Assembly: GCF_002775205.1 (NCBI RefSeq)
Contig: NC_036456.1
Location: forward strand, 22,502,968 to 22,566,967
From: Xiphophorus maculatus
Taxonomy: Eukaryota; Chordata; Actinopteri; Cyprinodontiformes; Poeciliidae
Direction of reading: 5' to 3'
DNA: 64,000 nt
Shown: piece by piece, positions 50,940-53,793 of the stretch
How positions within the stretch are numbered: the stretch's first letter is position 1
Layout: every line of letters starts with the position of its first letter
Notes under the pieces: model-generated
Told to the model about the DNA's origin: nothing
Database searches by the model: none
Seen by the model: only the letters and a program-made list of their open reading frames with translations
Made by a program: the position numbers and the translations under genes

Positions 50940-51958
50940 GACTCTGTTTTCACTTCAGCTGCTGTTTGTTGTCTTGTTTTTCCAACTTAAAAACTTTTTG
51001 AAAATTGTAACGTTACAGAAACTCTAATGTGTTAATAATCTAAATAAAATTATCCAAAGCTATCGTGCTACTTAAAGTATTCTTGAAGTTAAGCCATACC
51101 GTATATACACTTCATTATATTCTTACAAAATCACAAGAAAGAAATGGGAACATAATGTTTAAAAATATACCATGTAGTCTATTTATGGATATCCATTTTA
51201 AAATAAGATCCTTTATAAAATGCTGCACTTTGAATGAAAAGCAAAGATCCAAGACTTTTATGTAAAAATGTAAGCAATATTCTCTAAAAAGTCAAATCTT
51301 TCTTTGTCAAAAATGGGAGAGGAAAAAGTGCACTTCCTTAAAAAATGTAAACAGAATGGTGTCTCCAACTGAGAACTGAAGGTCCAAGAAAGGCAAAAAG
51401 AAAAGTGCAGATCAATAAATATCAACAAAAGAGGAGTCATCTCTGTTATAAACTAAATGTAAGCATGAGTCTGTACTTGGATCAAGATATACTAAGTATT
51501 AGTACCTTGTGGCAGGAAGTACATAAAGTGCAAGTGTAAGCTTTAGTGTTAAAGTATACAATAAGTGAATGTCTTAGTCTTTATGTTCTTTTTCTTTATG
51601 TTTTTATGTTTATGTTTTTATGTCTTAGTATTTATGTTCTTTGTTGCTGTGAAAGCTGGAGCCGATTGAAGGAAGTAAAATTTGTTTACATGTCACATTT
51701 AGTCTCAAACAGGTTTACAAAGTTGCATGTAGTGTTTTAATTTCCTAATGGACTAATAAGATAAGGATGGCAAAAACATATTATGTAAATGCAACTCAAA
51801 TACTGAAAAGGTTTAACAGCATCACGATCTTTGACTGGTCCAAAGATCCTTCTGCTCTGACCAAGAGACAAAAACAAACACAGCTATCTTCTTCTTTTGG
51901 TTTGTCCAAACATAAACCGACCTCTGCCTTGTTTTTCTCTTCCTCTTTAGTGTGTCAG

Positions 51959-53793
51959 AGGTTCAAACAGCAGAAACAAGATGGCCGCCGCTATGCAAGT
52001 GGCACCAACATGTACAGGATGCAACGGTGCTCGACTGGATCACATCTCTCTCTGTGTTCAGGTGATGATTGGGTAAGAAGTTTGAGTCTGAGGAAGTGCT
52101 CTTTCAGGCAGTTATTGATCAGTTCTAAACAGAACAATAACTGAAACCAGAGTTGGTTTTTGTGGTTTACAGTAAACAAACAGAAAACATGCAATGAAAT
52201 AAAATAGATGTGTAGTTACTGGCAACTGAAATTGGTAGGATTGTTTCTAAAGATTTAGACACAAACAGTGAATATCCTTTAGTTTATTGATAATCCTTTT
52301 TATGACTAAAGAAAAATGCAGGACCGTGGGTAGAGCCTTGCGGTGCTCCACCTTTAACTGGATCAGTGTTTTTGTTCTGTTAGGAGCCACTGGCCCCAAC
52401 TTTCTCACATCCAGCTCCCATTTCCTCCTCCAAAGGTCTCCAAATGCCCGTCTGGCTGCAGACTGCAGGGTTTGATGTCAGAAATGGAAAGTGACGTGGA
52501 AAAAAAACTGCAGATGTTCTGTCAAAAGTCAAGTGTTTATGAAATCGCAATGGAGAAGTCCATGGCAGAGATGACGCACATCTACAACTCTAACCGCAGA
52601 GCCATGGTCAACAGATACAGTTAAGATTCACACGTGTTCAGTTTAGGCTTTTTGGAATAAATAACAACGAATTAAAGCTGGATTTTGTGTTTAGTTTCAG
52701 AACTGAAGTTTGTGGAAAGTGCCGACAAACTGGGCAAGAACCTCAGAGAACTACGACAGCGATCACGATTTCTGGCACAGAAGATAAAGGAGTTGAGCAA
52801 CCATGTGAGGAAACAGGTGGAGGAGCTGTATCGAACAGAGGTGAGGATACAACAGAACAAAGACAGTAAATACAGCTGTGCACATTTTTCAAGTGAAAGG
52901 AAAATTAGACATTTTGTTGTGAAATGTTTTACAGATAAAACTGAGAAGTTGGTCTTTGTGACAGAAAATTCTGCAGTAAACCTCAATAGAAAGCTACCAG
53001 AGGTCTGTCATAATACATTTTGCTGGACGATAAATTGTCCCAGAAGTTATTGCGATAAATTATAATATTGCTATTTTGAGACAATTTTAATCTGATATAA
53101 TGGTAATGACATAATAGTGCAAGTACCCTCGCTTAACCCTCAATAAGCTTTCATTTCTAACTGCAGGACATTTCAAATATCCAAAATAAATAATATATTT
53201 TTTTAAAACTAATAAAATAAATACTAAAGTCTCTGTAAACAAAATTGTTGTTCAAAAAAGAGGATAGTTGAGACCAAAGCACCAGATTGAGGCTTTTTAT
53301 TATCCAGTTTTTGGTAGAAAGACACAAGAAAAACAATCATGCAAATGCAATGATCACATTGTGACTATCATCACATTCATTGATTTATTGCTTATTGCTA
53401 ACATCTTGCGCCTTACATCATCAGGTGGACGTAGACATGAAGCTAAGGACCTGCCAGGGAACCTGCCGCGTGGCGCTGATGCTCAGCGTCGATCACCATG
53501 GCTACCAGACTCTTCAAACGGACCTACGCCTCATGGACAAAACCATGAAACAGAAAACCAAACCCGCCAAGCCTCCACAGAACATTCCCCGAGTTACGCT
53601 GCAGCCGGCGAACGTCGGCCCGCCGCCGCCAGCAGAATACAAAACGATCCCGACGGTCCAGAAAGAGCTGCTGACGCAGTTTGAAGACATTGAACAGAAC
53701 CGTATTGTTCTGGTGGACCAGTCAGACCAGGCGAACACACTCAGAGCTGCAGGTTCTAATCTGGAACCAACAGCTGAGGGAGAATCACTGTAA
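51959..53793 (+). CDS. Fibrinogen alpha-like paralogue without knob A, alpha-C or globe; first exon not found
   Basis: Exons 51959-52072, 52436-52619, 52701-52840 and 53425-53793 (268 codons) correspond to fga exons 2, 3, 4 and 5-6. Exon 3 is exactly 184 bases in both genes; phases match. All the ring cysteines are kept: RCST and LCSGDDW, then SKCPSGC, then TCQGTC. Exon 5 continues without the next fga intron into a Pro-rich tail (KPPQNIPR, GPPPPAEY) and ends GESL-stop; there is no Ser-rich alpha-C region, no hairpin cysteines and no globe. Exon 2 has no R|GPR- or R|GAR-like thrombin site. Frames are open with no internal stops. The signal-peptide exon is missing: the 700 bases upstream offer no ATG, hydrophobic run and donor. 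The frame is open back to 51767, which does not look like a signal peptide. It may use a distant first exon, or be decaying. Confidence 0.8.
53000..53262. repeat. Dispersed repeat, copy in the alpha-like gene
   Basis: Second copy of the family seen at 47486-47770 (CTGGACGATAAATTGTCCCA, GAAGTTATTGCGATAAA). Intronic. Confidence 0.65.

What the first reader, a model, noticed from the sequence alone, without database searches (positions are those of the whole stretch)
51767..53793. Tandem alpha-fibrinogen paralogue reduced to the coiled-coil core
Four exons match fga exons 2-6 in size, phase and all ring cysteines, but the product would lack the thrombin-exposed knob A, the cross-linking alpha-C region and the globe. 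Frames are intact, so it is unlikely to be an old dead copy. If secreted, such a chain could occupy the alpha position in the hexamer and make fibrinogen that cannot use knob A: a built-in brake on clotting, or a non-clotting soluble form. The sequence shows the architecture; the role is inference.
Basis: partly seen in the sequence, partly recalled or inferred. Interest (0 to 1): 0.8.

Follow-up and report, generated by a model that had tools for sequence, protein, structure and literature searches.

The report
Fish fibrinogen alpha gene's second coil
In ray-finned fish, exons just behind the fibrinogen alpha gene look like an optional last part of that gene, one that would give the clotting protein's alpha chain a second copy of its rod-forming segment, rather than a separate clot-braking gene.

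Summary
The four exons are real and intact, with two corrected boundaries: 51951-52072, 52436-52619, 52695-52840, 53425-53793. They encode a complete alpha-type coiled coil: ring cysteines, 111 residues between rings, returning-helix region. They are old: relatives occur from gar and eels to percomorphs and form one group, support 99/99.

They are probably not a free-standing paralogue. No credible signal-peptide exon was found between fga's stop and the cassette. The first exon starts in phase 1 and joins in frame to two donors inside fga exon 7 (47986, 48550), giving open chains of 543 and 731 residues. In 21 public protein models from 19 species these exons are joined to fga, 13 at or close to the equivalent of 47986 and 6 at the alpha-E donor.

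Best reading: an alternative 3' end of fga, like the alpha-E globe, making an alpha chain with two coils that keeps signal peptide, fibrinopeptide A and knob A. The 'no knob A, brake on clotting' idea then loses its basis. No RNA was examined, no assembled-contig protein seen spans the fga junction, and 82 short separate models stand against 21 fused ones. Function is inferred.

The parts
43602..43652 (+). fga exon 1: signal peptide MKKLSLLLCLVSVAITQ
43808..43912 (+). fga exon 2: fibrinopeptide A, knob A (GARP) and E-ring cysteines; phase 0 to 0
   Evidence: the names of the peptide and knob rest on recalled knowledge of fibrinogen
45018..45201 (+). fga exon 3: first coil, 184 nt
45413..45558 (+). 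fga exon 4: first coil, 146 nt
46138..46236 (+). fga exon 5: D ring
46506..46658 (+). fga exon 6: returning helix region
47914..48576 (+). fga exon 7: connector and alpha-C region, alpha stop at 48576
47986..47988 (+). class A alternative donor (CCCAG|GTACTT), last exon base 47986, phase 1; the place of the join in 13 fused models, in a few shifted by one or two codons
48550..48552 (+). alpha-E donor (ACAG|GTACCA), last exon base 48550, phase 1; fits the globe exon and, in 6 fused models, the second coil
49614..50287 (+). fga globe (alpha-E) terminal exon, phase 1 start, the known alternative end
51951..52072 (+). cassette exon a: linker Cys (VC), basic linker and E-ring cysteines; phase 1 to 0
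52436..52619 (+). cassette exon b: start of second coil with the extra Cys, 184 nt
52695..52840 (+). cassette exon c: second coil, 146 nt (start corrected from 52701)
53425..53793 (+). cassette exon d: D ring, returning-helix region and tail, stop
53802..53807 (+). AATAAA poly(A) signal right after the stop

Best explanation
The four exons are an alternative 3'-terminal cassette of fga, used in place of the alpha stop or the alpha-E globe exon. Splicing from a donor 73 nt into fga exon 7 (47986), or from the alpha-E donor (48550), onto the acceptor at 51951 gives an alpha chain that keeps the signal peptide, fibrinopeptide A, knob A and first coiled coil and then carries a second complete alpha-type coil in place of (class A) or after (class B) the alpha-C region. 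Shown: frame, phase, splice signals, ring cysteines, spacing, age, and recurrent fused protein models. Inferred: that the junction is used in this fish, that the chain is secreted, and that the second coil, being in register for beta and gamma, recruits a second beta/gamma pair, so that one alpha chain ties two rods together. The step to secretion leans on the conserved ring cysteines and an N-x-T sequon; the step to beta/gamma pairing leans on the exact 111-residue spacing.
For: Of 260 proteins held, 21 models from 19 species join the cassette to fga: 13 just after the SPATxSK stretch of exon 7 (SKVP|VC or close variants), 6 at the alpha-E donor or close to it, 2 elsewhere. In four species a globe form and a second-coil form have equal contig lengths and isoform numbers: Seriola lalandi P0152/P0188, Vanacampus P0168/P0248, Syngnathoides P0173/P0253, Siniperca P0147/P0165. 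Both donors in the window join 51951 in frame with one stop, at the end. The cassette's phase-1 entry differs from fga exon 2 (phase 0) and equals that of the globe exon. The class A donor codon is Gly in 73 of 78 alpha-C-bearing chains that hold the preceding motif (tallied). Second coil: 111 residues between rings in 19 of 20 chains (19 models and the window; one cut off) and in 53 of the 56 short models that could be measured, of 82. In 18 chains (17 models and the window): six ring cysteines in 18 of 18 second coils, the first shifted by one in Astyanax; an extra coil Cys in 18 of 18 second and 0 of 18 first coils; an N-x-T sequon in 13 of 18 and 0 of 18. Linker Cys and extra Cys invariant in 19 models. 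Hydrophobic N-termini in 19 of 21 fused models and 5 of 82 short ones. One group with gar branching first.
Against: No RNA was examined; the fused chains are database models. The nine fga proteins from assembled contigs that I checked (eight 'lgn', one 'ena') all end in the ordinary alpha C-terminus, and of the seven 'lgn' cassette proteins six start at or after the acceptor and one (P0054) carries seven residues unlike fga before it. Short separate models outnumber fused ones (82 against 21), and NCBI shows a separate model in X. hellerii and P. latipinna. Gene predictors can merge tandem neighbours. Cheilinus and Pagothenia models (P0014, P0018) have a hydrophobic N-terminus directly upstream of the cassette. 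One search listed 120 of 227 hits. The exon-1 scan covered only 50288-51930 and exons up to 149 nt. Gly at the donor may be kept for the protein's sake. The second coil evolves faster than the first (mean identity 0.517 against 0.717). The window's and Poecilia's second coils lack the sequon. The tree program warned of long branches meeting between the two coil groups.
Confidence: 0.66

Rival explanations
1. Independent tandem paralogue with its own promoter: a short alpha-like chain without knob A that is secreted and takes the alpha place in the hexamer, slowing clotting.
For: 82 short models; seven 'lgn' proteins read through the internal exon joins they cover, so spliced cassette sequence exists (partly by eye); hydrophobic N-termini upstream of the cassette in P0014 and P0018. 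An fga chain without exon 2 was found in zebrafish plasma (one blot, n = 1), homozygous larvae mostly fail to occlude, and heterozygotes show an intermediate thrombocyte response (PMC7826895, sections 2.3 and 2.4); alpha-220 fibrinogen makes weak clots (PMC8553339 passages).
Against: No credible signal exon with a phase-1 donor at 50288-51930; no consistent start among short models; 21 fused models. In that zebrafish study heterozygotes showed no change in time to occlusion (p 0.361). Fibrinogen is undetectable in plasma of fga mutant zebrafish (review PMC5796141, passages) although zebrafish has the cassette (P0074), which speaks against an independent chain able to replace alpha.
Confidence: 0.22
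2. Decaying duplicate kept by chance, transcribed by read-through and without a selected product.
For: Faster evolution than the first coil; Gadus is a long branch; 21 of 82 short models lack the first ring motif, though this may be poor gene prediction.
Against: Six ring cysteines, an extra Cys and exact inter-ring length kept over the fishes compared; 22 second coils form one group in an order close to that of the species.
Confidence: 0.07
3. Both: a fused isoform and an autonomous short transcript, the latter regulatory or untranslated.
For: Databases show both model types, in Poecilia mexicana for what is the same coil (P0003, P0141).
Against: The two models come from different sources; no transcript was seen here.
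Confidence: 0.05

Closest known systems
Fibrinogen alpha-E chain (fibrinogen-420), the globe-ended splice form of FGA
   Same: Alternative terminal exon of the same gene, entered in phase 1 from the same donor; adds a domain after the ordinary alpha chain.
   Different: The added part is a second coiled coil instead of a globe, and a second donor leaves the alpha-C region out. The alpha-E form itself is recalled and mentioned in PMC5796141 passages; the window exons are.
[quoted passage not shown]
   Different: They are mutants of fga without exon 2; the fused product proposed here keeps exon 2.
Recombinant alpha-220 fibrinogen (PMC8553339, abstract and passages)
   Different: Engineered and single-coiled; class A puts a second coil there.
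Fib_alpha coiled coil of FGA, FGB and FGG (PF08702)
   Same: Ring motifs, spacing, hydropathy profile.
   Different: Extra coil Cys, linker Cys and N-x-T sequon in the second coil and not in the first coil.

Membership tests
Fibrinogen alpha coiled coil (PF08702) | Pfam match above curated cut-off | tested here: met
   62.1 bits against 29.9
Fibrinogen alpha coiled coil (PF08702) | CPSGC ring and C-x-G-[ST]-C ring 111 residues apart | tested here: met
   111 in the window and in 18 of 19 fused models, the other cut off
Fibrinogen alpha coiled coil (PF08702) | assembles with beta and gamma chains | not testable with these tools
   no complex prediction or assay
Independent fga paralogue gene | own signal-peptide exon | tested here: not met
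   no credible candidate at 50288-51930, exons up to 149 nt; 5 of 82 short models hydrophobic near the start, two of them spurious
Independent fga paralogue gene | own promoter and transcript | not tested
   no RNA data; databases carry separate models
Alternative 3' end of fga (alpha-E kind) | in-frame joining to an fga donor | tested here: met
   47986^51951 and 48550^51951 open
Alternative 3' end of fga (alpha-E kind) | joined transcripts | tested here: inconclusive
   21 joined protein models, 19 species, but models, not reads; no assembled-contig protein seen spans the join
Alternative 3' end of fga (alpha-E kind) | linked to fga | tested here: met
Knobless, non-clotting alpha chain | mature chain begins without thrombin site and knob A | tested here: inconclusive
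   true of the cassette alone, false of the fused chain

The most novel reading that the evidence does not exclude
Ray-finned fish make a double-coil fibrinogen alpha chain whose second coil takes up its own beta and gamma chains, so that one gene-encoded chain joins two fibrinogen rods end to end: a built-in branch point or seed for fibrin, kept since before gars and teleosts parted.
Probability: 0.25. Interest if true: 0.87.

Novelty: new variant of a known kind. Interest (0 to 1): 0.64.

Why it matters
Fibrinogen is taken to be a hexamer with one coil per chain. An alpha chain with two coils would change how fish fibrinogen can be built and would bear on zebrafish clotting models, since lesions early in fga would remove it while an independent paralogue would survive them. 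It would also explain a set of odd short 'fibrinogen alpha chain' entries in databases.

Tried and rejected
The start at 51767: no signal peptide, shared with two poeciliid models only, and the acceptor lies inside it. An own exon 1: a scan of 50288-51930 for ATG exons up to 149 nt with phase-1 donors gave, as the only strongly hydrophobic candidates, a low-complexity stretch near 51583-51648; an exon further away was not looked for. A difference in the spacing of the first two ring cysteines, which I noted early as diagnostic (notebook), was wrong: it is 8 residues in 18 of 20 first coils and 18 of 20 second coils, 7 in the rest. The notebook's 12 of 18 sequons is also wrong; the output shows 13 of 18. 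Rooting the tree with FGB failed, its branch being far too long, so the order of second coil, teleost first coil and tetrapod FGA stays open. The AlphaFold model of the fused Poecilia chain is poor as a whole (mean pLDDT 52.8) with one long helix at 319-430 (ten-residue means 63-87 over 321-430); no fold search was made on it. Rows dropped: P0157 and P0220 (odd joins) from the fused set, and P0182 and P0184 also. Papers: in ten searches no title or abstract start that was listed speaks of a second coil in an alpha chain; several listings were capped (25 of 153, 10 of 453, 10 of 525), and 'second coiled-coil' with fibrinogen and alpha chain gave 0 papers. The zebrafish fga papers of 2012 and 2014, cited in papers seen, did not appear in the listings. 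Seen in passages only: PMC5796141, PMC8553339, PMC3749180, PMC3787019, PMC4829857, PMC4598134, PMC10623068.

Full report
Place. The window is G000:C14:22502968-22566967 of a 704-Mb assembly; the cassette is 97% identical to a Xiphophorus hellerii entry, so the fish is a Xiphophorus or close kin (inference). fga lies on + from 43602, fgb on - between about 60.2 and 55.2 kb (by eye), and the finding lies between them. In the whole genome PF08702 gives six matches at four places: fga, the cassette, fgb, and contig C5, which I take for fgg from its sequence.

The observation. Translation gives four exons with canonical borders. Two boundaries change. The first homologous exon starts at 51951 in phase 1; many relatives share VC-x-R-[LF]-K-Q-Q from this point. 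The third starts at 52695, because relatives read RY-x-SELKF or similar. Exons two and three have the lengths of fga exons 3 and 4, 184 and 146 nt; the first is 122 against 105 nt and enters in phase 1 against phase 0. Homology reaches through the returning-helix region of chicken fibrinogen alpha.

Age. Searches gave 62 relatives of 396 candidates and 145 of 6374, 120 listed: percomorphs, Dallia, characins, catfish, cyprinids, shad, eels, tarpon, cod and gar, mostly named 'fibrinogen alpha chain'. One search also lists many bird FGA fragments and a snake FGA; the three of these that I read are ordinary single-coil chains. A tree of 42 rows puts all 22 second coils in one group, 99/99, with gar branching first; the 14 teleost first coils form another, 87/97. 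The order relative to tetrapod FGA is unresolved, and the program warned of long branches.

Probably not free-standing. Among the 61 of 82 short models with a ring motif, 2 to 286 residues precede it. A search with fga itself returned 227 hits, 120 listed, and among the 260 proteins then held 21 have two rings. Thirteen join the cassette within fga exon 7 just after the SPATxSK stretch (P0141, P0144, P0147, P0148, P0149, P0155, P0160, P0164, P0168, P0173, P0182, P0184, P0219; in P0184 and P0219 one or two codons later), six at the alpha-E donor or close to it (P0151, P0152, P0153, P0156, P0180, P0211), and two within the globe exon (P0157, P0220). In the window CCCAG|GTACTT at 47986 and ACAG|GTACCA at 48550 are both phase 1, as is the acceptor 51951; the joined frames are open for 543 and 731 residues. 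Siniperca isoform X3 (P0165) joins the class A point to the globe exon, so that donor may serve both ends. In 73 of 78 alpha-C-bearing chains with the preceding motif the codon at the donor is Gly; 11 further chains spliced at that point were set aside, and 31 of the 120 did not match the motif. Protein conservation alone could also explain this.

What the second coil keeps. Between rings: 111 residues in 20 of 20 first coils and 19 of 20 second coils (19 models and the window, one second coil cut off), in 53 of 56 measurable short models of 82, and in 100 of 101 other chains; 112 in the window's fgb as I joined it. Over 18 chains (17 models and the window) all six ring cysteines are kept in both coils, the first of them displaced by one residue in a few; an extra Cys 21 residues past the ring is in 18 of 18 second coils and 0 of 18 first coils; an N-x-T sequon is in 13 of 18 and 0 of 18, missing in Xiphophorus, Poecilia, Scophthalmus, Genypterus and Syngnathoides. 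The linker Cys of VC and the extra Cys are invariant in 19 models, which suggests a bond between them or to a partner (inference). The hydropathy profiles of the two coils correlate best at zero shift (0.41; next best 0.26 in shifts of -14 to 14). Pairwise identity is lower in the second coil, 0.517 against 0.717, in 152 of 153 pairs.

Transcription. Seven proteins of source 'lgn', which I take to be contigs assembled from public reads (recalled), read through the internal exon joins they cover (P0004, P0020, P0021, P0047, P0050, P0054, P0068), so spliced cassette sequence exists; partly by script, partly by eye. Three others (P0060-P0062) read into introns. None of the seven shows the fga join, and the nine 'lgn' or 'ena' fga proteins checked have the ordinary alpha end. 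So the fused form, if real, is a minority form, or its contigs broke at the branch. This is the weakest point of the case.

Mechanism. A fused chain would enter the ER by fga's signal peptide (hydrophobic N-termini in 19 of 21 fused models), pair by its first coil as usual, and offer a second coil in the same register. The exact length and ring cysteines suit pairing with beta and gamma better than a loose homotrimer, but neither was tested. Class A chains trade the alpha-C region for the coil. The brake model would need an autonomous secreted chain. Against that, fga mutant zebrafish have no detectable plasma fibrinogen (review PMC5796141, passages); a fused isoform would be lost in such mutants if the lesion lies before the join, an independent chain would not. 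An fga chain without exon 2 is present in zebrafish plasma (one blot); heterozygotes show an intermediate thrombocyte response but no change in time to occlusion (PMC7826895, sections 2.3, 2.4).

Linkage. In Dallia the two carry neighbouring tags (DPEC_G00105600 and DPEC_G00105610).

Verdict. A conserved optional end of fga coding for a second alpha coil, confidence 0.66; independent gene 0.22. None of the titles and abstract starts listed by ten searches of an open library describes it.

Noticed in passing
window 43504-43516 and 51954-51966: Sequence before the fga start codon and cassette exon a share 13 identical bases (gtcagaggttcaa) and similar following bases; it may be chance or a trace of the duplication.
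   Followed up: no
window 43808-43912: Knob A of this fga reads GARP, not GPR-; so do 18 of the 19 fused teleost models aligned, while Xiphias (P0164) reads GNRP.
   Followed up: partly
P0014 and P0018 N-termini: Labrid and notothenioid models both begin MFDL..PR..DL and run through a hydrophobic stretch into the cassette; this may be conserved intron sequence, a promoter region, or a real signal sequence.
   Followed up: partly
P0040 (Larimichthys crocea): Zinc-finger protein model fused to the cassette, likely a chimeric gene prediction.
   Followed up: no
window 29096-29643: Repeat open in several frames on both strands (translated unit like CGEQPVESNLWRAT).
   Followed up: no
window 27048-28574: Single open frame of 509 residues on +, gene not identified.
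   Followed up: no
window 5677-5967: Open frame with a signal-peptide-like start followed by a stretch TVIIVRGIGLNGDKIGDTDAWV that looks C2-like by eye.
   Followed up: no
G000:C5:30420088-30421073 (L004): The gene that I take for fgg lies on another contig than fga and fgb in this fish.
   Followed up: partly
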